From assembly GCF_002007215.1 (NCBI RefSeq), contig NZ_MUHX01000020.1:1-46458 (forward strand): a stretch of 46,458 nucleotides of DNA. Direction: 5' to 3'. Below, piece after piece: positions 35,770 through 46,162 of this stretch. The position numbers and the translations under genes are program-made. Position 1 is the stretch's first letter; every line of letters starts with the position of its first letter. This stretch comes from Pyramidobacter sp. C12-8 (GTDB lineage: Bacteria > Synergistota > Synergistia > Synergistales > Dethiosulfovibrionaceae). The notes beneath the pieces are model-generated. The model was not told the DNA's origin. It did not search any database and saw only the letters and a program-made list of their open reading frames with translations.

Positions 35770-36099
35770 CTAAAACGGCAGCTTCATGCCGCCGGTCAGA
35801 GAGCCCATGCGCTGTTCCATCATTTCCCGGGCTTTGTTGGCCGCGTCGGACACTGCCGCGAGGATCAGGTCTTCGAGCATTTCCACGTCTTCGGGATCGA
35901 CCACCTCTTTGGAGATCTTCACGCCGACCAGTTCGCCCTGCCCGTTGACCGTGGCGCTGACCATGCCGCCGCCGGCATTGCCTTCCACTCGGGCCTCCTT
36001 CAGCTCTTCCTGAGCCTTCATCATCTTCGCCTGCATCGCCTGAGCCTGCTTGAGCATCTGGCTCATGTTGCCCATACCGCCTCTGCCGCCAAAGTTCAT
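35770..36099 (-). CDS. YbaB/EbfC nucleoid-associated protein
   Basis: 109 aa. A Met/Gly-rich start, then the coiled MLKQAQAMQAKMMKAQEEL helix, GGGMVSATVNGQGELVGVKI, and the PEDVEMLEDLI segment are typical. A small DNA-binding dimer, regularly paired with recR. Confidence 0.95.
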   Translation of the reverse strand: MNFGGRGGMGNMSQMLKQAQAMQAKMMKAQEELKEARVEGNAGGGMVSATVNGQGELVGVKISKEVVDPEDVEMLEDLILAAVSDAANKAREMMEQRMGSLTGGMKLPF

Positions 36100-36129: not shown

Positions 36130-36600
36130 CTAATGATGATATTTCGAGCCCTCGTGGATCATGGCCGCGCGATAGATCTGCTCGCTGAGAAGCAGCAGCG
36201 CCATCTCGTGCGTGAAAGTCATCTTCGACAAAGATATTATCACGTTTCCGCGTTTTTGCAGCGCCTCCGAAGTGCCGTAGGGACCGCCGATCAGGAAAAC
36301 CAGCCGTCCCCGCCCGCCGCCAAGCAGATCGTAGATCCTGCTCGAGAGCTCTTCGCTGCCCAGCGCTCGCCCGCGCTCGTCCAGCAGAAAAAGAACGTCC
36401 TCGCCGCCGATGCGCTTGAGGAACTCCTGCCCCTCAAGCTCTTTGCGCTGCTCGACGGTCAGTTTTTTCCCTTTGCCCGGTTCGGGCAAAAAAGTCCACT
36501 CTACCGGCAGCAGCGGCTTCAAACGCGTCCGATAGTGTTCCAGACCTTTGACGATGAACGGCTCGCGCGGACGCCCCATGGCCAGCACCTCGATTTTCAT
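36130..36600 (-). CDS. rlmH: 23S rRNA pseudouridine-1915 N3-methyltransferase
   Basis: 156 aa. Motifs FLLDERG, FLIGGPYG and ISLSKMTFTHEMALLLLSEQ are diagnostic of the SPOUT enzyme RlmH; the C-terminus ends in the expected KYHH. ATG overlaps the preceding D-like gene stop (ATGA), so it is coupled to the V-ATPase-like genes despite having an unrelated job. Confidence 0.96.
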   Translation of the reverse strand: MKIEVLAMGRPREPFIVKGLEHYRTRLKPLLPVEWTFLPEPGKGKKLTVEQRKELEGQEFLKRIGGEDVLFLLDERGRALGSEELSSRIYDLLGGGRGRLVFLIGGPYGTSEALQKRGNVIISLSKMTFTHEMALLLLSEQIYRAAMIHEGSKYHH

Positions 36601-37163
36601 CGTCCTTCGCTCACTTTCCTCCGGTGCCGTTCCGTTTCGAAAGCGCGCTCGCGGGCGACACGCCGCGCCGCAAACGAACGGACAGCCTGCTCGCGCGCCC
36701 GCTCCGCCTGTTTCAGGCTGCGCCGCAGCCGGCGGATCAGATGATCCGCCGAACGCAGTTCCATCACGCCGTTGATATATTCCCACAGCGAGCGCACCAG
36801 TTCTTCGATCTGGAGCGAAGCGCTCTCCTCCTGAGGCGAGGTGAGCAGCGAAGTATAGCGCGGCAGCAGGCCGTGCCGCATGCCGGCGTCCGCACGGTAA
36901 AACTGCGGACACTCCACGCCGGAACGGATTTCCTTTTTCGATTCGACGGCGATCGGGGAAAAACTGAGCCGGAACAGCTCGGCGCTCTGCGGCCCGCTGT
37001 AAATGTTCAGCATCGCCAGAGCGGAAGCGGTCCGCGTTGTCAGTTCGGCCAGCCGCCGTTTCTGTTCGAGACTCCGGGCGCCGAGGCGCTCCCGGCTGAC
37101 GATCAGCCGACGGATGCGCTGGCGCAGCCTCTCCGGCAAAGAGCGGACGTCTTCTCCGCTCAT
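36597..37163 (-). CDS. V-type ATPase subunit D-like protein
   Basis: 188 aa, mostly helical: basic N-terminal coil (residues 8-50), a central less regular region (about 55-105), and a long C-terminal coil with many Arg (130-188). This is the layout of the V/A-ATPase rotor shaft D. Sequence similarity is weak, and the call leans on position: it directly follows the B-like gene, as D does in known operons. The ATG overlaps the B-like stop (ATGA). Would form the central stalk with F. Confidence 0.7.
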   Translation of the reverse strand: MSGEDVRSLPERLRQRIRRLIVSRERLGARSLEQKRRLAELTTRTASALAMLNIYSGPQSAELFRLSFSPIAVESKKEIRSGVECPQFYRADAGMRHGLLPRYTSLLTSPQEESASLQIEELVRSLWEYINGVMELRSADHLIRRLRRSLKQAERAREQAVRSFAARRVARERAFETERHRRKVSEGR

Positions 37164-38371
37164 CGTGACGCCTCCCCGCCGTCATTGCGGCCGTATTCCC
37201 GCAGCAACGACAGCGGCACACGGCTGATGCGGCTTTCCGGCATCAGGGCAAGGATCCGCCAGATCCGCTGCGGCGAAGCGTCGGCGTGCGGTTCCAGATC
37301 GCTCAGGAACTCGTGCAGGGCGCGGTCGAACGCCCGCTCCTCCTCGCTGAGCGGATATTCGTCCATGCGCCGGCGTTTCAATTCCGCTCTCAGTTCCTTG
37401 CACTGGCGGCGCAGCAGGCAGGCGAACTCGACCGAACGGTCCATCCCCCGCGGGAGCTGGGGCATGTAACCGTTCAGCGACAGCGCGCCGTCGCCGCGCA
37501 GGGGCAAAACGCCGTCGAAAAGATCGCGCAGCGCCAGCAGCTCCGAAGGCAGTCCCGCCACTTTACGTTCCGAGAGCAGCATCGCCACGGTGATGCGTCC
37601 CTTGTGGCCGTACAGCAGCTGCATGTGAGTGCTCAACGCGTTTCTGAAACCGTTCAGAGCTCCGGCGCGGCTGCGGTAATAACCTCGCAGCGCCAGATCT
37701 TCCTGATAGAAGCGCGCCCACGATTCGAGGTCGAGCACCATCAGGAACACGTCGCGCCCTTCGTCGGCGCGGCCGATCGCCGCTTCCCAGCCCAGGCGCA
37801 GCGGCGTCATGCTCTGATAGAGCTGGTCGCGGCTGTCGGAAACAAACAGCCCTTCGTCTTCCAGCCCATAATGATCCCAGATACGGCGGATTTCCTCCGC
37901 CTCGTTTTTCGACGTGTCGAGCGAGATCAGGCACGGCCACTGATGATCCGAAAGCGCGCCGTGCAGCAGCGCGGAAAAGAATCCCAGCGAGCGATAGAGC
38001 GACACTCCGGCCACAAAGATCGAATGACCGTGCTGCAAGGGAAAAAGAGCGTCCACCGGCGCGATCCCCGTCTTGAAGACCGAGCGGCGCGTCAGCCGCG
38101 AAGCGGCCAGCGGCGGCTCGACCGGCAGTTCCAGTTCGTTGCTGCCCAGCCAGACCTGCAGCGAATCACGACAGAGAGAATGCTCGCCGTCGCAGATACG
38201 CACATGACAGCGGTCGTTTTGGACTTCGACGACGCGCCCCACGAAACTGTCGCCGGAATCGTCCCGGATCGTCACCAGATCGTTCAGCGACGCGCCGGCG
38301 AGGCGCTCGACCCAAAGCGACGAAGCAGAGAGAAAACTGACGTTGTTCGAACCGCGGCGAAGCAGTTTCAT
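37160..38371 (-). CDS. V-type ATPase subunit B-like protein, degenerate
   Basis: 403 aa against about 460 in normal B. A beta-barrel start (residues about 5-75) and the entry motif KTGIAPVDALFPLQHG (100-115) match B. The loop after it reads AGVSLYRSLG, with no P-loop Gly/Lys pattern. The segment VLDLESWARFYQEDLALRGYY (residues about 210-230) corresponds to the usual DMTNYCEALREI region, but the GRRGYPGYMY part is eroded. ATG at 38371 overlaps the A-like stop (ATGA), with GGAGGAA upstream. Normal B already has a non-catalytic site; the loss of surrounding motifs is what is unusual. Confidence 0.8.
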   Translation of the reverse strand: MKLLRRGSNNVSFLSASSLWVERLAGASLNDLVTIRDDSGDSFVGRVVEVQNDRCHVRICDGEHSLCRDSLQVWLGSNELELPVEPPLAASRLTRRSVFKTGIAPVDALFPLQHGHSIFVAGVSLYRSLGFFSALLHGALSDHQWPCLISLDTSKNEAEEIRRIWDHYGLEDEGLFVSDSRDQLYQSMTPLRLGWEAAIGRADEGRDVFLMVLDLESWARFYQEDLALRGYYRSRAGALNGFRNALSTHMQLLYGHKGRITVAMLLSERKVAGLPSELLALRDLFDGVLPLRGDGALSLNGYMPQLPRGMDRSVEFACLLRRQCKELRAELKRRRMDEYPLSEEERAFDRALHEFLSDLEPHADASPQRIWRILALMPESRISRVPLSLLREYGRNDGGEASR

Positions 38372-39690
38372 GGCCGTTCCTCCTCCTGCGCGCGCAGCCA
38401 GTCGATAAAGCTGCGGCGGCGCACATCGGGCCATTCGCGAAAGTTCAGCTGCAGTTCGGCGCGAATCTTCAGCACCGACGCCAGCAACGCCGGACCGGCC
38501 CGGGACGCCAGTCTCAGAAGCGTCTCACCGTCGGCATCGCTCCACTGCACGTGATTCTCCGGCTCCATCGCAAAGCCGAGCGGAGAATACTCCACGAAGA
38601 GCTCCCCGAAAAGTCCTGTCAGCGCTTCCAGCGCGTGACGAATGTCCTCGTCGCATTCCTCGGTCAGGCGGCACAGTTGCCGCCAACAGCGGCCGGCGGG
38701 CGACAGATCACCCCAGGAGTCCGCCGACGGTACCAGATTCTCCGAAAACTCTTCAAGGATGATGCCTGTGCGCATAAAACGCGGCAAACGCCCCATATAG
38801 GGATGCTCCGCAAGCGGTGAAAAGCCCTCTTCATAGCGCCAGCCGACGATCAGCGACGTGGAGCGACCGTCTCCATCGGGCCGCGACTTGAGGTCCAGCA
38901 GATCGCCCAACTGACGCCGGGCCGTATAAGGATAACCGTCGGGGAGCAGCGGCTCGCCCGAACTTTCGCCGTATTCACGCGCCGATTCCAGCCAGTAATG
39001 CAGATCGTCGATCAGGACCAGCCGTCGCCGGATGGCGTGAGGACGCCCCGTCAGATACGTGAGTGCCCGCGGCACCAGAGTCTTTATCGCCGGCACGTTC
39101 CACGGCGGCGTCCAGAGGATCGTGCAGCTCTCCGCACTGCCAGCCATCTGCACGGCGCGGCAGTAACGATACAGTTCGTGGTAACCGCCTTGGCAGAAAA
39201 TATACAGAAAATCCGCCCGCTGCGCCGCGGCGACCTGGCTGAACAACAAAGCGAAACCGCCCGGCGGTGTGCCCAGCAGCGCCACGCCCTCGCCGTCGTG
39301 CAGGTTCATGAATTCGCCCAGCGTTTTCAGCCCCCAGAAACTGCCGCCAGCCGTCTGCTGAGGAACCGCGGAAAAGTTGAGATTGCCCATCGACACGTCG
39401 CCGATCTTTATGATCTGCCGTCCCAGCGGATCGATCACGGCGCCCGGCTCCGCGCGGGCAAGGCGTTCTTCCAGCGTCTCGCCGCTCAGGCGCAGCAACT
39501 CGCCCGGCCGGATCTTTTCCGGAAGATCCAGCGGCAGGATGCGCACGGTCCGTCCGTCATGACTCTGCACCTGCCCATACCACGAGTTGTCTTCGGTGCA
39601 GGCGAATTCGCCCAGCACGACCGGAAATCCGGCTTCGATGCAAACGCTTTCGGCGCAAACCGACTGAACCGGCGCAGAATGCCCCTTTAT
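38368..39690 (-). CDS. V-type ATPase subunit A-like protein without catalytic motifs, AUA start proposed
   Basis: 440 aa from the proposed AUA at 39690 (a GTG at 39618 would give 416); normal A is about 580. N-terminal barrel (IKGHSAPV, then VLGEFACTE and IRPGELLRLSGE), then a jump to GLKTLGEFMNLHDGEGVALL; the large A-specific bulge is missing. The P-loop position reads GTPPGGFA instead of GPFGxGKT, near residue 142, with no Lys or Thr. The GERGNE glutamate motif reads QGGYHEL. LIDDLHYWLESAREYGESSG and LPDGYPYTARRQL still align to the region after Walker B, proving kinship. ATP hydrolysis looks impossible. See findings for the start. Confidence 0.82.
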   Translation of the reverse strand: MKGHSAPVQSVCAESVCIEAGFPVVLGEFACTEDNSWYGQVQSHDGRTVRILPLDLPEKIRPGELLRLSGETLEERLARAEPGAVIDPLGRQIIKIGDVSMGNLNFSAVPQQTAGGSFWGLKTLGEFMNLHDGEGVALLGTPPGGFALLFSQVAAAQRADFLYIFCQGGYHELYRYCRAVQMAGSAESCTILWTPPWNVPAIKTLVPRALTYLTGRPHAIRRRLVLIDDLHYWLESAREYGESSGEPLLPDGYPYTARRQLGDLLDLKSRPDGDGRSTSLIVGWRYEEGFSPLAEHPYMGRLPRFMRTGIILEEFSENLVPSADSWGDLSPAGRCWRQLCRLTEECDEDIRHALEALTGLFGELFVEYSPLGFAMEPENHVQWSDADGETLLRLASRAGPALLASVLKIRAELQLNFREWPDVRRRSFIDWLRAQEEERP

Positions 39691-39947
39691 TTCAACTCGC
39701 CTCCTTCCACCGCAGGCAAGGGGATCCAGTAAGGATCGACCGACTCCTGAAAATATTTTTTTTCCAACGAAGAAAAGCTCTTCACGAGCGTTTCCTCGTA
39801 TAAGACGGCCTCCGCTCCGGAGGCGAGTCCGGCTTCTTTCAGTTCCTGAAATCCGACCCGAGCGGGAACGATTTTTTCCATACAGCCCAGCACCGACCAG
39901 AGACGGAGAAACGACGCCGAACCGATCAAAAGCGCATGATTTTTCAT
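39687..39947 (-). CDS. V-type ATPase subunit F-like protein
   Basis: 86 aa, slightly below the usual 100. It begins with a hydrophobic strand (HALLIGSASFLRLWSVLG), as F does with its Rossmann-like first strand, and has an ETLVKSFSSLEKKYF segment. Assignment rests on size, fold pattern and position between C and A. GGGGGAG lies just upstream of the ATG. Rotor subunit binding D by family. Confidence 0.65.
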   Translation of the reverse strand: MKNHALLIGSASFLRLWSVLGCMEKIVPARVGFQELKEAGLASGAEAVLYEETLVKSFSSLEKKYFQESVDPYWIPLPAVEGGELK

Positions 39948-39955
39948 GTCTCCCC

Positions 39956-41029
39956 CTAACGGCCGACGAGCAGCACGCTCTGCAGCGCCGCGCGGTCCAA
40001 GCCGCTCTGCAGTCCGGAAACGACGGTCATCAGATCGCGCCACTCGCAGAATAAGCGCGCCCGATAGGATATGATCACCGATACGCCGAGCGGGTCTTCA
40101 CGGCGCAGCGTCATCTGCCAGAGCAGATACTGCCGTTCCAACTCGAACAGCGAACGTTCGTCGGGTTCCGCGCCGCGGGAACGCCAGAACGTGCCGCGCA
40201 GCAGCGCTTTATAGCTCTTTGCGAAGAGCAGACGCTCCAGCGGCAACGAACCGCCTTCGAGAAAACGCGCCGGTTCGTCCGGCGCGCCGGAGCCGTAATG
40301 GACACTCAGCCAGACGCGCAGATTCCACAAGTCGATCAGATAGCCGAGACATTGCGAGACAACCATCCCATTCGCGCCGCGGCACCGTTTCAGCACGCCG
40401 CCGGCCCAGTCAAAAGAGCTCTTCATGTAGGACCACTCGGCTTCCCAGAGCCGTCCCGACTCGTCAAGCAGTTTCACTGCCGTGCTGAGCGCATTGGACA
40501 GCTCCGTCGGATCGTAGCGGCACAGTTCGTCGATCTGTTCCCGGTCGCCGCCGGCGCCGGCCAGCTGCCGCCAGAATTCCGGGCTCAGTTCGCCGCAGCC
40601 GGGCATAGCCGGCTCGTAATCGTTCCGCCCCGATTGGAGCGCGCGCAAAAAGAGCTGGCCGTTTTCCAGATCCGACTGGATCGAAAGCACCGACGTGAGC
40701 AAGCGCACCGTGCCTTTGCCCCAACTTTTCAGTTCGCCGAAACGCTGTCGGGCGGAAGCGGAGATCAGGCTCTCCAGTTTCAGCGCCAGCGGCATGTCCG
40801 AGAGCATGAAGTCCCGGCGGTACAGCGGGCCGTAAACCGTATCGAGCAAATATCGTTCCACGCCTTGCAAATCCGCACACGCAAGTTCGGCAAAAACCTG
40901 AGTCGGGAGGAAATCCCGCGTGCGGGCGCGCAGACGCCCGTTCACGTATTCGTAATTAGCCTCTTCCCTGACGGTGGACGACAAGCTCGCAGCGGTATTG
41001 CTCCCAGCGGGTCTGAAAGGTGCAGTCAA
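39956..41029 (-). CDS. V-type ATPase subunit C-like protein (AC39 family)
   Basis: 357 aa from TTG 41029. The family motif YEYVNGRLRART and DTVYGPLYRRDF are followed by long helices and a C-terminal ENxxRxW-like stretch (LFCEWRDLMTVVSG). C couples the central stalk to the membrane ring. TTG 41029 has GGGAGG 8 nt upstream but overlaps the E-like gene by 74 nt; GTG 40945 would cut the YxYxN motif and is less likely. A TTG at 40984 is another option. Confidence 0.8.
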   Translation of the reverse strand: MTAPFRPAGSNTAASLSSTVREEANYEYVNGRLRARTRDFLPTQVFAELACADLQGVERYLLDTVYGPLYRRDFMLSDMPLALKLESLISASARQRFGELKSWGKGTVRLLTSVLSIQSDLENGQLFLRALQSGRNDYEPAMPGCGELSPEFWRQLAGAGGDREQIDELCRYDPTELSNALSTAVKLLDESGRLWEAEWSYMKSSFDWAGGVLKRCRGANGMVVSQCLGYLIDLWNLRVWLSVHYGSGAPDEPARFLEGGSLPLERLLFAKSYKALLRGTFWRSRGAEPDERSLFELERQYLLWQMTLRREDPLGVSVIISYRARLFCEWRDLMTVVSGLQSGLDRAALQSVLLVGR

Positions 41030-41528
41030 AGAGCGCGCCTCCCTCCTCGATCAGGATAAAGCCGCCCCAGCGCCCGGGATCTTTTTCTTCCACGTTGAAT
41101 CCCGCGGCACGAAGCAGTCCGGCTTCGCGCGGCCCGGCGCGAAACGTTCCCGCGCCGGAAAATCCGGCGCGACGGCATTGCTCCGCCATTCTCGCCAGGA
41201 ACGCGCCGTAGCTCTCGCTGCTTCGAAAAAGTTCGATTCTCCGCCGCAGTTCCCGTTCGAGCCGCCGCAGATGCTGCGCTTCGAGCTCTTTCTGCACGCT
41301 GCTCTCCAGCGCGCGCACCAGACGGCGACGGCGCATGCTCAAGCGCTCCAGCGCCTCTTCGCAGGCGGCGGTGCATTCCTTCACAGCGGCGGCCGCCTCG
41401 TCACGGCAGGCGGCGATCAGCCCGCCCATGCGGCTGTCCGCGGACGCCCGCATCGCCTCGTGCTGCGCCGCAAGTTCCGCCTCCATGGCGCGCAGAAACG
41501 CCGGAGGCAGAAGTTCCTCGCCCGTCAA
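40956..41528 (-). CDS. V-type ATPase subunit E-like protein
   Basis: 190 aa. A long amphipathic helix (about 10-105) rich in Ala, Glu and Arg is followed by a mixed globular end with GGFILIEEGGALFDCTFQTR, matching the E subunit C-terminal fold. E and G form the peripheral stalk. The TTG start is supported by AGGAG 7 nt upstream, 10 nt after the K-like stop. Confidence 0.8.
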   Translation of the reverse strand: MTGEELLPPAFLRAMEAELAAQHEAMRASADSRMGGLIAACRDEAAAAVKECTAACEEALERLSMRRRRLVRALESSVQKELEAQHLRRLERELRRRIELFRSSESYGAFLARMAEQCRRAGFSGAGTFRAGPREAGLLRAAGFNVEEKDPGRWGGFILIEEGGALFDCTFQTRWEQYRCELVVHRQGRG

Positions 41529-41538
41529 CGGAAAACTC

Positions 41539-41757
41539 CTAGGCGAACTGCAAGATCAGCATGATGGCCACGACGAAACCGAGAATGACCATCGTCTCCG
41601 GGATCGCTTCGAGAATGATCATCGTGCCGGCCGTTTCCGGTTTTTCCGCCACGCTGCCGGCCGCCACGCTGCCGATCCTGGCCTGGGCGAAAGCGGTCGC
41701 AAGCGCGGGGATCCCCACGGCCAGCGCTGCCGCCAATGCTACGAGTCCTTTTTCCAC
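41539..41757 (-). CDS. V-type ATPase subunit K-like proteolipid, single hairpin
   Basis: 72 aa, two membrane helices (about 5-32 and 47-70). The ion-binding carboxylate is Glu54 in AIPETMVILG; Gln25 on the first helix faces it in similar rings. Q plus E-T is a partial fit to known Na+ sites, but specificity is not settled. The short one-hairpin form differs from 4-helix eukaryotic and Enterococcus K. The GTG start has AGGAGG 8 nt upstream and lies inside the end of the I-like gene (19-nt overlap). Confidence 0.9.
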   Translation of the reverse strand: MEKGLVALAAALAVGIPALATAFAQARIGSVAAGSVAEKPETAGTMIILEAIPETMVILGFVVAIMLILQFA

Positions 41758-43634
41758 GATAGTTTCCTCCTGTATATAAAAGGATGATAATCTTTTCCCT
41801 GAGCAGCGTAAAAATTGCCCATGAACTCCACATAATGAAGACGCGCCGCGTGCAGCCCCGACTCGGCGAACGCCAACACGAAATTGAGCAGATGGATCGC
41901 CAGCGCGACGAAAAGTCCCAGCGCCGAAACGCCGAGAACGTCCACGAACTTCGAAGCGGCCACCGCAAGGATAGCCGACGACAGGCCGATGGCGCCGATG
42001 CGCACATAACTGAGGATGTGCCCGAAAGAACTCATCGCTTCGATCAGTCCGCCGATGCCGCCCCCGGCCGTCAGCAGCACCAAGCCGACGACGAGCGCCG
42101 CGATGCCGCCCGGAAAAGCTTGCGGCGGCAAAAGCCGGCGCACGGACATGAGCGCCGCCACCATAGCCAGGATCACCAGCATGGCGCCCAGCTTTTCCAT
42201 GGCGTGCTTTTTATGGCGAGCTTTCAGACCGTGGATCAGCCCCACCGCCAGACCGAGCAGCACGTGCCCCAGCCCGAGGGCCACCGAAAACATCAGCACC
42301 GGCATGACGGCCTGAGAACGTTCCACCCAGAGCGGTTCCACGTGGAACATCCGGTGCGCGAAATCGCCGAAGAACTCGCCGAAGGCGGCGCCCCAGAGAA
42401 TGCTCCAAACGCACATGGTCATGAGAACGAAAGCCACGTCGCGCACCGCTTCGCTTTTGGCGCGGCGGCGCACGAGACACGTCAGGATCATCATGACCAG
42501 TCCGTAGCCGGCGTCGCCGATGATGCAGCCTGCGAAAAACGGGAAAAACACGCCGATCAGGCTGGTGGGATCCGCCGTGCCATAAGCCGGCGGCTGCACG
42601 AGTTTGAGAAACACCGCGAAGGGCGCAAAGAATGCGCCGTGGCGGAGAGCGGTCGGCACCTGTCCATATTCGTCGGGTTCCGGTTCGCGGCTGTGAAGCG
42701 CGACGCGCCCGGCAAATTTTTCTTCCAAACGGACACGGAAATCTTCCAGACCACGCTGCGGCATCCAGCCTTCGATCAGCAGCACGCCGCCGAGGCGGTC
42801 GCAGCGGCTGAAGACCTGATACTGGTCGACCTTGCGATCGATCAGCAAAAAAAACGCCTTCTGCCGAGGACCCCACTGCTTTCTCATGGCGACAAGTGCA
42901 GACTGCTCCGCCTTGAGAAGGGACTGGATCTCCGACAGACGGCGTTTCATCAGTTCCATGCTTTCAGCATAATTTTTTCCGGCATATTGAGGCGGCGGCG
43001 TCCACAACGCAGCGCCGATGTCATGCAGGATTTCCGTCACAGCGGAAATCCGAGCCGCCGGCACCGAAAGCTCGACCAGCAGCTGATCCTCTTTGGCGGT
43101 ATCGTGCACGTGAAACAGCGTTTTCTCGCCGTCAGCACACTGGCGTTCGATCTGTCTCAGCGCCAGCGGCCAAAGGTCTTTCGCTACCCACCAGAGCAGA
43201 CAGCGACGTCCCAAAGAATCCTTAAAAGCGAGCGTTCCCAGCTGCGCAAGAATACGTTCCAGCAGTTTTTTCTCATCAGTAAGACGGTCATGCCCTTTCA
43301 TGATGCAGGCTAGCTCCGCCTGAAATTTTTCTACGCTTTTTTCCAGCTCGGGAACGGTGAGAGCGAAGGATTCGGACAGGATCCGCTCCACCTCGGCGTC
43401 GGCCGCAGCAGGAACGCTTTCCGCCGAAGCGGGAACGGCAATTCCCTCCAACGTTTCCACCACGGCGCGCAGCTTCTCGCGCAGCACCAAGAGCCGATCT
43501 GCCAGATCGACGTTGTGCTGTTCTTCAGAAGGCAGGATCAGATGGACGCGCCCGTCGGCCTGCAAGAAGTCGATCAGCTCCATCCCCAGAGATTCGGGGA
43601 GCGCCAACGACAGCCGGCACATTTTTTCGATCAT
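41739..43634 (-). CDS. V-type ATPase subunit I-like (membrane a-type subunit)
   Basis: 631 aa. The N-terminal half is cytoplasmic and helical; the C-terminal half has about eight membrane segments. The essential ion-path arginine is present (LSYVRIGAIGL, Arg545). FFPFFAGCIIGDAGYGL and ESGLHAARLHYVEFMGNFY are family hallmarks. This subunit forms the ion half-channels against the K ring. Nothing looks degenerate, in contrast with the A- and B-like subunits. ATG overlaps the G-like stop (ATGA). Confidence 0.95.
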   Translation of the reverse strand: MIEKMCRLSLALPESLGMELIDFLQADGRVHLILPSEEQHNVDLADRLLVLREKLRAVVETLEGIAVPASAESVPAAADAEVERILSESFALTVPELEKSVEKFQAELACIMKGHDRLTDEKKLLERILAQLGTLAFKDSLGRRCLLWWVAKDLWPLALRQIERQCADGEKTLFHVHDTAKEDQLLVELSVPAARISAVTEILHDIGAALWTPPPQYAGKNYAESMELMKRRLSEIQSLLKAEQSALVAMRKQWGPRQKAFFLLIDRKVDQYQVFSRCDRLGGVLLIEGWMPQRGLEDFRVRLEEKFAGRVALHSREPEPDEYGQVPTALRHGAFFAPFAVFLKLVQPPAYGTADPTSLIGVFFPFFAGCIIGDAGYGLVMMILTCLVRRRAKSEAVRDVAFVLMTMCVWSILWGAAFGEFFGDFAHRMFHVEPLWVERSQAVMPVLMFSVALGLGHVLLGLAVGLIHGLKARHKKHAMEKLGAMLVILAMVAALMSVRRLLPPQAFPGGIAALVVGLVLLTAGGGIGGLIEAMSSFGHILSYVRIGAIGLSSAILAVAASKFVDVLGVSALGLFVALAIHLLNFVLAFAESGLHAARLHYVEFMGNFYAAQGKDYHPFIYRRKLSWKKDS

Positions 43635-43966
43635 CGGCGCGCTTCCTCCTCTCCGTTCATTGCCGCCCAGGCGCGGTCCAGTTCCGCATCCATCGGCGCG
43701 CAGGCGGCTTCGACGCGGCGGCGCTCCGCTTCCTCGCGCATCCGTTCGAGAAGCAGCTGAGTCTCGCGCTCATAAGCGGCAACTCTGGCCTTCTGCATCT
43801 CGTCGCAGCGTTTCAGCGTGTTCTCCACCATCAACCGCGCCCGCCGTTCCGTCTCGTCGACGCGAGCTTCGAGCTCCCGTTCCAGGTTGAGCGTCTGCGT
43901 CCGCTGAGACGCAACGAGTTGGCGCAACCGCTCTTTCCAGCGCGATTCGCTTTCCTTCGGCGTCAT
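43631..43966 (-). CDS. V-type ATPase subunit G/H-like coiled-coil protein
   Basis: 111 aa, almost entirely charged helix (Glu/Arg/Ala heptads from about 10 to 95), the expected form of the peripheral-stalk partner of E. ATG at 43966 overlaps the CBS-protein stop (ATGA). The call rests on fold type and its place directly before the I gene. Sequence alone is not diagnostic. Confidence 0.65.
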   Translation of the reverse strand: MTPKESESRWKERLRQLVASQRTQTLNLERELEARVDETERRARLMVENTLKRCDEMQKARVAAYERETQLLLERMREEAERRRVEAACAPMDAELDRAWAAMNGEEEARR

Positions 43967-44430
43967 GAGGCGCCTCTGGAATTCATCAGATACTCGCACA
44001 GATCGCCCCGGTCGATGATCCCGACGAGAAGCCGCCCGTCGAGGACGGGCAGGCGCTTGACTCTGAGCCGCAGCATCAGGTCGGCCACGTTCATGATGTT
44101 CGCCGTCGTCTTCACGGACTGACAGTTTATCTGCATATAGTCGCGCACCGTGCCGGCGCGGACCTGCGAGAATTTTTTCGTCAGCAGTTCGTGCTCGCCG
44201 TAGAGGAAGGAATCCTGCGCAAGGATCTCCAGATACGACGGCAACACGGAACGGAGGATGTCCGATTCCGAAAGGAAACCCACCAGACGCCACCGCTCGT
44301 CCACGACCGGAACGCCGCTCAGGCTGTGACTGTGCAGCACGTGCATGGCGTCTTCGACGGTGTCTTCGGCCATCACCGCGGTCAGATCGCGCTTCATCAG
44401 CTGCTCGGCGGTCACCATTTCGTTACTCAT
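43963..44430 (-). CDS. Tandem CBS-domain protein
   Basis: 155 aa. CBS1 (about 8-66: DTVEDAMHVLHSHSLSGVPV, then LVGFLSESDILR) and CBS2 (about 95-150: VADLMLRLRVKRLPVLDG, then LVGIIDRGDL). Such pairs bind adenosine nucleotides and often regulate transporters. It overlaps the glycosyltransferase gene by 8 nt and the G-like gene by 4 nt, so it is made with the V-ATPase-like complex; a regulatory role is inference. Confidence 0.88.
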   Translation of the reverse strand: MSNEMVTAEQLMKRDLTAVMAEDTVEDAMHVLHSHSLSGVPVVDERWRLVGFLSESDILRSVLPSYLEILAQDSFLYGEHELLTKKFSQVRAGTVRDYMQINCQSVKTTANIMNVADLMLRLRVKRLPVLDGRLLVGIIDRGDLCEYLMNSRGAS

Positions 44431-46162
44431 GATCTTTTTCTCTCCACGGGAAGACGTTGAGCCGCTCGCGAAACACCGCCAGCACAAAAGCCAGCAGCTG
44501 GAAATCGCGCTTCAGCCGCCACGGCTCCTGGAACAGGCGATAGAGCCATTCGCAGCCGATTTTCTGCCAGAAGCGGGGCGCCCGCTTCAACACGCCGGCG
44601 TAAACGTCGAAGCTGCCGCCCACGCCCACGCAGAGGACCCCGTCAAGATTCGCGCGCTGCGAGTCGAGCCACTTCTCCTGTGCCGGCATGCCCAGCGCCG
44701 CAAACAGGATCTTGGCGCCGCTTTTGCGCACGTTGCCGGCCACTTCGTCGGAAAACGCGCGGTCGAAATAGCCGTCGTAACAGCCCGAAACGACCAACCC
44801 GGGATATTCTCTTTGCAGGCGTTCCGCGGCGCGGCGGGCAATGCCCGGGCGGCCGCCCAACAGGTACACGGGCAGCGATTCGGACGCCGCCAGACGGCAG
44901 AGCCGATCCATGTAATCGATGCCAGCGATGCGTTCCACCACAGGCACTTTCAGTTTTTTCAACGCCCATACCAGCCCCGCGCCGTCGGGAAGATTCAGAT
45001 CGGCCGCGTTGGCGATGCGGCGGAACTCCGCGTCGGAGCGCGTCTCGTTCAGCCCCAGCGCGTTCATCGTCACCACCATGTGGAAGCGCGGCTCGGAGCT
45101 CTTGAGCCAGGCCAGACTCTTCGACAGCGCGTAGTTCATGGAGATCCCGTCGATCCTCACGCCCCACAGCGCATGGTCATCGGCGCGCGCGCGGCGGCCG
45201 CCGTGCACGCCCCACAGCACCAGCAACAGCACGCCGGCCATCGCCGGCACCGCCATTTTCAGCGCGGCGGAATCCGGGATCAGCTGCATCAGCGCCACCG
45301 AGGCGCCCACCAGCAGGCAAATCTCCGTCACCAGACGCACTGCCGCCGGATGATCCACGCCGCGCTCGATCACGCGGCTGTAAAGGTCAGGCGCCACGCG
45401 AGTCTGTCCATGCGTGAACGCGTGACTGACCAGCCCCAGCGACAGCTCCACCAACGGCACAGCGTAAAATCCCAGCGGGATCACCATCAGCGCCGTGAGC
45501 GTGATACCCTTGCTGACGCCGATGATGGAAATGCCCGCCACCAGCGTGCCCCACAGGGACGCCAGCGGCGTTCCCAGCTGACGGAACTGATGGCCGAGCC
45601 GGCTCCAGTACGCGCCGACCAGCACCAGAGACACGACCGAGACCAAAAACGCCTCGCCCAGATTCTGGCGCGAAAAATACGTCACCGCGACCATCAGCGA
45701 AAGGCTGACGCCCAGCAGATGTCCCGCCAACCCCGGCACCTGGTCGAGCCGCCGGAACAACACGGGGAACAGCGTCATCCACGCCGTGGTCAGCAGGATA
45801 GACTGCCATGAAGACAGGTAGAGGAACGCGGAGCCGCTGGAAGAGACGAATGAGATCGGCTGCCCCGTCAGGGCGAAGATCAGCCCGGGCAGAACGATAA
45901 AGGCAAAGAAACCTTTTCCCGGTCGAGCCCGCTCCGCCAGCCCCACGACCATGGACAGCAGCGAACAGGCCACCAGCGCTTCGATGCGGTCGCTGCCGCT
46001 CCACAGGGCCAGCAGCATCATCACCGTCATCAGCGAGAGGTCCCTCATGTAGAAATATTGATCTCGGCTCAGTTTTTTCCTGAAAAAACGCTGAAGCGCC
46101 ACGCACCCGATCGCCACCAGAAGCAGCGGCACGATCGCGTCAGCGCTGAAGGGCAACGTCAC
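44423..46162 (-). CDS. Polytopic membrane domain fused to WecG/TagA/CpsF glycosyltransferase
   Basis: 579 aa. Residues about 1-320 hold roughly ten membrane segments; near residue 260 a VIERGVDHPAAVRL stretch recalls the HxHH region of WecA/MraY-type phosphoglycosyl transferases, but their Asp-rich catalytic motifs are not seen. Residues about 335-565 are a complete WecG/TagA domain: MNALGLNETR, NLPDGAGLVWALKKL, ERIAGIDYMDRLC, GVGGSFDVYAG and the C-terminal EWLYRLFQEPWR. The enzyme class adds a sugar to a polyprenyl-linked precursor. GTG start with GGGAGG 8 nt upstream. First gene of the long chain. Confidence 0.87.
   Translation of the reverse strand: MTLPFSADAIVPLLLVAIGCVALQRFFRKKLSRDQYFYMRDLSLMTVMMLLALWSGSDRIEALVACSLLSMVVGLAERARPGKGFFAFIVLPGLIFALTGQPISFVSSSGSAFLYLSSWQSILLTTAWMTLFPVLFRRLDQVPGLAGHLLGVSLSLMVAVTYFSRQNLGEAFLVSVVSLVLVGAYWSRLGHQFRQLGTPLASLWGTLVAGISIIGVSKGITLTALMVIPLGFYAVPLVELSLGLVSHAFTHGQTRVAPDLYSRVIERGVDHPAAVRLVTEICLLVGASVALMQLIPDSAALKMAVPAMAGVLLLVLWGVHGGRRARADDHALWGVRIDGISMNYALSKSLAWLKSSEPRFHMVVTMNALGLNETRSDAEFRRIANAADLNLPDGAGLVWALKKLKVPVVERIAGIDYMDRLCRLAASESLPVYLLGGRPGIARRAAERLQREYPGLVVSGCYDGYFDRAFSDEVAGNVRKSGAKILFAALGMPAQEKWLDSQRANLDGVLCVGVGGSFDVYAGVLKRAPRFWQKIGCEWLYRLFQEPWRLKRDFQLLAFVLAVFRERLNVFPWREKDHE

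What the first reader, a model, noticed from the sequence alone, without database searches (positions are those of the whole stretch)
43963..46162. CBS sensor and a glycosyltransferase fusion translationally linked to the V-ATPase-like genes
The CBS protein overlaps the genes on both sides (8 and 4 nt), so its dose is tied to the complex. CBS pairs sense AMP/ATP/S-adenosyl compounds, which would give a head that cannot hydrolyse ATP an external nucleotide sensor. The envelope glycosyltransferase at the head of the chain hints at a link with cell-surface synthesis. The coupling is seen; the role is inference.
Basis: partly seen in the sequence, partly recalled or inferred. Interest (0 to 1): 0.6.

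Follow-up and report, generated by a model that had tools for sequence, protein, structure and literature searches.

The report
CBS gene in a V-ATPase operon
A small protein with two CBS domains (modules that often bind AMP or ATP) is encoded at the front of a second V-type ATPase operon in every Synergistota genome found to carry that operon, so it is probably a dedicated regulator of the complex, whereas the glycosyltransferase gene beside it is only a neighbour.

Summary
The overlaps are real: GT fusion/CBS 8 nt, CBS/next ORF 4 nt. Overlap alone is weak evidence, but conservation is strong. In 167 Synergistota genomes, 58 carry the window's type of V-ATPase subunit I and all 58 carry the CBS orthologue. 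In 55 the two genes lie 331-528 bp apart on one contig, with one coiled-coil ORF between. Two more are cut by contig ends and one is truly split. The glycosyltransferase link is not supported: GT stays where the cassette is absent. Two same-genus genomes have GT followed 12-13 nt later by rlmH, without CBS or any V-ATPase gene. The stated rationale, a sensor for a head that cannot hydrolyse ATP, is wrong as an origin: CBS accompanies intact, P-loop-bearing heads in most relatives. A termite-gut clade lost rotor subunits C, F and D from the operon yet keeps CBS, I, K, E, A and B. Best reading: CBS is a dedicated regulatory partner of the membrane/peripheral-stalk side, probably sensing adenine nucleotides. 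The gene association is shown; binding and mechanism are inferred. I found no description of it in the papers searched.

The parts
44423..46162 (-). GT fusion: about 330 aa N-terminal multi-TM region without a Pfam family plus C-terminal WecG/TagA/CpsF glycosyltransferase; conserved neighbour, judged not part of the cassette
44423..44430 (-). 8-nt overlap of GT stop and CBS start
43963..44430 (-). CBS-pair protein, 155 aa; first gene of the cassette
43963..43966 (-). 4-nt overlap (ATGA) of CBS stop and next start
43631..43966 (-). 111-aa coiled-coil ORF in the place of peripheral-stalk subunit G (NtpF position); 4-nt overlap with I
   Evidence: (weak F0 b-subunit hit)
41739..43634 (-). V-type subunit I, 631 aa; essential-type Arg (SYVR) kept
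41539..41757 (-). V-type subunit K (c-ring), 72 aa; Q and E of the ion site kept
40956..41528 (-). subunit E-like (ORF from TTG; true start uncertain)
39956..41029 (-). V-type subunit C (start uncertain)
39687..40043 (-). subunit F-like (start uncertain)
   Evidence: orthologues in L036 and L089
38368..39618 (-). A-like head protein, 416 aa, no P-loop and no CGERGNE
37160..38434 (-). B-like head protein (start probably near 38371)
36597..37163 (-). subunit D-like; last gene of the cassette
36130..36600 (-). rlmH, flanking housekeeping gene; abuts GT where the cassette is absent
35770..36099 (-). ybaB, flanking housekeeping gene

Best explanation
The CBS gene is the first gene of a ten-gene cassette (CBS-G-I-K-E-C-F-A-B-D): a second, paralogous V-type ATPase operon of Synergistota that lies between GT and rlmH-ybaB-recR. 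SHOWN: it is always found with this operon, adjacent to it except in one split case, is lost with it, and is kept when the head or the rotor decays. INFERRED: the protein, probably a homodimer, binds an adenine nucleotide in its CBS cleft, most likely through the conserved CBS1 motif G-x-x-S-E-x-D, and binds the peripheral stalk or subunit I to set the activity, coupling or assembly of the complex according to cell energy state. This would be the way AcuB, encoded in the acuABC operon, binds AcuC according to AMP/ATP/Ap4A. GT is a neighbour in a housekeeping operon.
For: Co-occurrence 58/58; 55 within 331-528 bp. Clean empty sites in two same-genus genomes and in other families. CBS kept next to heads without P-loops (window genus, L022) and in operons without C/F/D (L049, L050, L056, L063, L064, L070, L094, L095). 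In the one split operon CBS stays with the G-like gene (L092/L060 vs L091). Purifying selection in the window genus: CBS dN/dS 0.24. After regressing out GT distances, CBS distances correlate weakly with I, E and G (0.25-0.29) and not with D (0.01). The CBS1 S/D motif is conserved in nearly all orthologues. Closest folds are AcuB with AMP/ADP/Ap4A and CBSX2 with AMP; AcuB precedent PMC13121692, PMC13039410. A CBS paralogue sits 54-76 nt downstream of a CitMHS/ArsB-type ion transporter in two genomes.
Against: No binding, interaction or activity data. The second CBS motif (D/N position) is lost in most relatives, and AcuB's bridging Arg-His pair appears absent (mapped by eye), so ligand binding may be single-site or lost. 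AcuB binds its partner through an ACT domain, which is absent here. Inheritance is mostly vertical, so the 58 genomes are not 58 independent tests. Mirror-tree differences are small. One genome (G128) has the operon split from CBS.
Confidence: 0.7

Rival explanations
1. CBS is only co-transcribed with the V-ATPase operon and regulates something else, for example GT, or IMPDH (guaB) downstream; the linkage is frozen gene order.
For: Most inheritance looks vertical (GT-I distance correlation 0.88-0.91). GT and guaB lie in the same wider neighbourhood.
Against: GT and guaB stay while CBS vanishes exactly with the V-ATPase genes. No cassette-bearing genome has lost CBS, although C, F, D and catalytic motifs have been lost.
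Confidence: 0.15
2. One reading: CBS was recruited to give a head that cannot hydrolyse ATP an external nucleotide sensor.
For: The window's A-like and B-like proteins lack nucleotide motifs. In the P-loop-less lineage (window genus, L022) the second CBS motif has an Asp that other orthologues lack.
Against: CBS is present with intact GGFGTGKT/CGERGNE heads in most relatives, so it predates the loss. The Asp difference is probably one event in one lineage.
Confidence: 0.1
3. CBS, GT and the V-ATPase form one system linking ion transport to cell-envelope synthesis.
For: Always adjacent where all three exist and the contig is intact.
Against: GT is present in 58 of 61 genomes with or without the cassette, next to rlmH/ybaB when it is absent. 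GT dN/dS is 0.07 against 0.24 for CBS.
Confidence: 0.04

Closest known systems
Bacterial V-type (Na+) ATPase operon, ntp type (Enterococcus hirae)
   Same: Gene order G(F)-I-K-E-C-F(G)-A-B-D as recalled for ntpFIKECGABD; most relatives have intact A and B; K has the Q and E of the ion site.
   Different: A CBS gene leads the operon; no ntpH/J seen; the window's A and B lack nucleotide motifs; a second canonical V-ATPase exists in the same genome.
AcuB (acuABC operon, Bacillus), energy-charge/Ap4A sensor
   Same: CBS pair as operon-encoded regulator; nearest fold match (PMC13121692, PMC13039410).
   Different: No ACT domain here, different partners, different ligand-contact residues; 21-27% identity.
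CBSX1/CBSX2 (Arabidopsis), stand-alone CBS pairs binding AMP
   Same: Single CBS pair; CBSX1/2 rank high by profile and by fold.
   Different: Act on thioredoxins (own knowledge); no link to an ATPase operon.
Mycoplasma F1-like ATPases (atypical clusters)
   Same: A rotary-ATPase relative adapted to another role (PMC3369863, PMC12994834, seen as search results).
   Different: F-type, keep ATPase heads as far as I know; no CBS partner.

Membership tests
V/A-type ATPase | Membrane subunits I and K with ion-path residues | tested here: met
   Pfam I 3.1e-21, K 2.8e-16; invariant Arg and Q/E
V/A-type ATPase | Catalytic A subunit with P-loop and catalytic Glu | tested here: not met
   Window A-like has GTPPGGFA in place of GGFGTGKT and CQGG in place of CGERGNE; P-loop and Glu are intact in most relatives
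V/A-type ATPase | Operon order and a full set of stalk subunits | tested here: met
   G-I-K-E-C-F-B-D recognised in order in the window genus (L036, L089); A is too divergent for the intact-A profile
CBS-pair (Bateman) proteins | Two CBS domains | tested here: met
   PF00571, two stretches; confident model, pLDDT 87
CBS-pair (Bateman) proteins | G-h-x-[ST]-x-x-[DN] nucleotide motif | tested here: inconclusive
   Met in CBS1 in nearly all; in CBS2 the Asp is present only in the window genus and L022, and Ser/Thr is absent in the window
CBS-pair (Bateman) proteins | Binding of adenosine ligands | not testable with these tools
   Needs a binding assay
AcuB | C-terminal ACT domain | tested here: not met
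   155 aa, CBS pair only
WecG/TagA/CpsF glycosyltransferase (GT) | WecG/TagA domain | tested here: met
   PF03808 1.8e-60; TIGR00696 above cut-off

The most novel reading that the evidence does not exclude
In the window's genus and in the termite-gut clade the complex is no longer a rotary pump but a Na+ channel or ion-gradient-responsive device built from I, K and the peripheral stalk, in which CBS, not the A/B head, is the nucleotide-responsive element.
Probability: 0.15. Interest if true: 0.85.

Novelty: new variant of a known kind. Interest (0 to 1): 0.52.

Why it matters
Bacterial V-type ATPases are not known to me to have a dedicated nucleotide-sensing subunit, and the library searches found no report of one. 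An obligate CBS partner would be a simple, testable way to tie a V-type pump to energy charge. Its retention after loss of ATP-binding motifs, or of rotor subunits, gives natural variants in which the role of CBS can be separated from ATP-driven rotation.

Tried and rejected
AlphaFold model of the A-like protein (4 sequences) was poor (pLDDT 45); its fold search gave no significant match, though ATPase heads were among the weak ones: not used. hhalign of A-like against intact A aligned only the N-terminal region, at low probability; its homology rests on operon position, a weak Pfam hit and the L022 homologue. The CBS scan of 84,980 species gave only Synergistota, Bipolaricaulota/Acetothermia and one Thermotoga bin; in the non-Synergistota loci no V-ATPase gene was recognised within the DNA held, and a sugar-kinase-like gene precedes CBS. 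That scan is sequence-specific: an unrelated CBS gene next to a V-ATPase in another phylum is not excluded. Plasmid search gave only generic CBS proteins. Literature searches found no CBS-V-ATPase link. The promoter scan found none; the terminator-like hits are near chance.

Full report
OBSERVATION. The finding's anatomy is correct. On the minus strand the GT fusion stop overlaps the CBS start by 8 nt and the CBS stop overlaps the next start by 4 nt. The gene after CBS is a 111-aa coiled-coil ORF in the position of peripheral-stalk subunit G; it overlaps subunit I by 4 nt. Overlaps of this size are ordinary in compact operons, and the GT-CBS spacing varies among relatives, so the overlap alone says little.

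The window lies in a Synergistota genome. Across 167 genomes of the phylum, subunit I of the window's type was found in 58 and the CBS orthologue in 59. The single excess, G028, has both as fragments. In 55 of 58 the two genes are on one contig, 331-528 bp apart, with one small ORF between them. Only G128 is truly split: CBS and the G-like gene on one contig, I-K-E-A-B on another (L092/L060, L091). The hypergeometric value (1e-44) ignores shared ancestry and should not be read as independent evidence.

INSERTION SITE. The usual order is serS-GT-[CBS-G-I-K-E-C-F-A-B-D]-rlmH-ybaB-recR-PIN/TRAM-ispDF-guaB. Where the cassette is absent, GT lies next to rlmH or ybaB. Two same-genus genomes show this with gaps of 12-13 nt (L096, L097), and other families show it too (L037, L038, L039, L041). 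GT is present in 58 of 61 relatives regardless. CBS therefore travels with the V-ATPase genes and GT does not.

HEAD STATE. In most relatives A is 570-600 aa with GGFGTGKT and CGERGNE, and B is intact. A and B without these motifs are found in the window genus and in L022 (G006). CBS thus predates the loss, and cannot have been recruited to compensate for it. In a clade of termite-gut Synergistaceae bins (gut origin guessed from record names), own-type C is absent from ten genomes, own-type D scores only at the level of canonical V-ATPase copies, and no F is recognised in the operon; one further genome, G124, keeps C and D. In several of these A keeps GTGKT but has CGGRG for CGERG. CBS, I, K and E are kept throughout, and K keeps its Q and E. 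The window genome also has a canonical V-ATPase elsewhere (C133). Purifying selection acts on the whole cassette in the window genus: dN/dS is 0.10-0.24 for most genes, 0.39 for the G-like ORF and 0 for K.

THE CBS PROTEIN. Two CBS domains; AlphaFold model pLDDT 87. Best fold matches are AcuB with AMP, ADP or Ap4A and CBSX2 with AMP. Among orthologues the CBS1 motif G-[FY]-[LIF]-[SA]-E-x-D is nearly invariant. In CBS2 the acidic end of the motif is missing except in the window genus and L022. In AcuB, Asp52 (type II site) and Asp122 (type I site) hold the ribose (PMC13121692); by motif position these correspond to D57 and D143 here (inference). A single working site per chain is therefore plausible in most orthologues. 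Ligand binding is not shown.

MECHANISM. Shown: obligate association, co-loss, and retention when catalytic and rotor parts are lost. Inferred: direct binding to the complex. The weak extra distance correlation with I, E and G, and none with D, the retention with I-K-E, and the stay of CBS with the G-like gene in the split operon all point to the peripheral stalk or subunit I. AcuB is a precedent for an operon-encoded CBS regulator that binds its partner according to energy charge (PMC13121692) or Ap4A (PMC13039410). A CBS paralogue in the same phylum lies just downstream of a CitMHS/ArsB-type transporter in two genomes, so this branch of CBS proteins keeps company with ion transporters.

VERDICT. 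The link between CBS and the complex is supported; the glycosyltransferase link and the compensation story are not. The arrangement is a V-type ATPase operon with an added, obligate CBS gene: a new variant of a known kind. I found no report of it in the open-access library, which lacks most subscription papers.

Noticed in passing
L049, L050, L056, L063, L064, L070, L094, L095 (G081, G119-G123, G125-G128): V-ATPase operons without the rotor subunits: own-type C absent genome-wide, no own-type D, no F in the operon, while I, K, E, A, B and CBS persist; A often has CGGRG for CGERG. G124 keeps C and D as an intermediate.
   Followed up: partly
window 37160-39618; L022, L036, L089: A-like and B-like heads without P-loop or catalytic motifs, under purifying selection.
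   Followed up: partly
L087:5530-6009 and L090:5303-5773: CBS paralogue 54-76 nt downstream of a CitMHS/ArsB-type transporter.
   Followed up: partly
window 44423-46162, N-terminal ~330 aa: Conserved multi-TM region of the GT fusion matches no Pfam family, with invariant D, G, R, W residues; possibly a diverged polyprenyl-phosphate sugar transferase (own guess).
   Followed up: no
L095:7512-8405: PD-(D/E)XK family transposase gene inserted between I and K; L070 has the same 955-nt gap.
   Followed up: no
window CBS residue 143 (codon in 43963-44430): Asp at the end of the second CBS motif only in the window genus and L022, the lineages with P-loop-less heads.
   Followed up: partly
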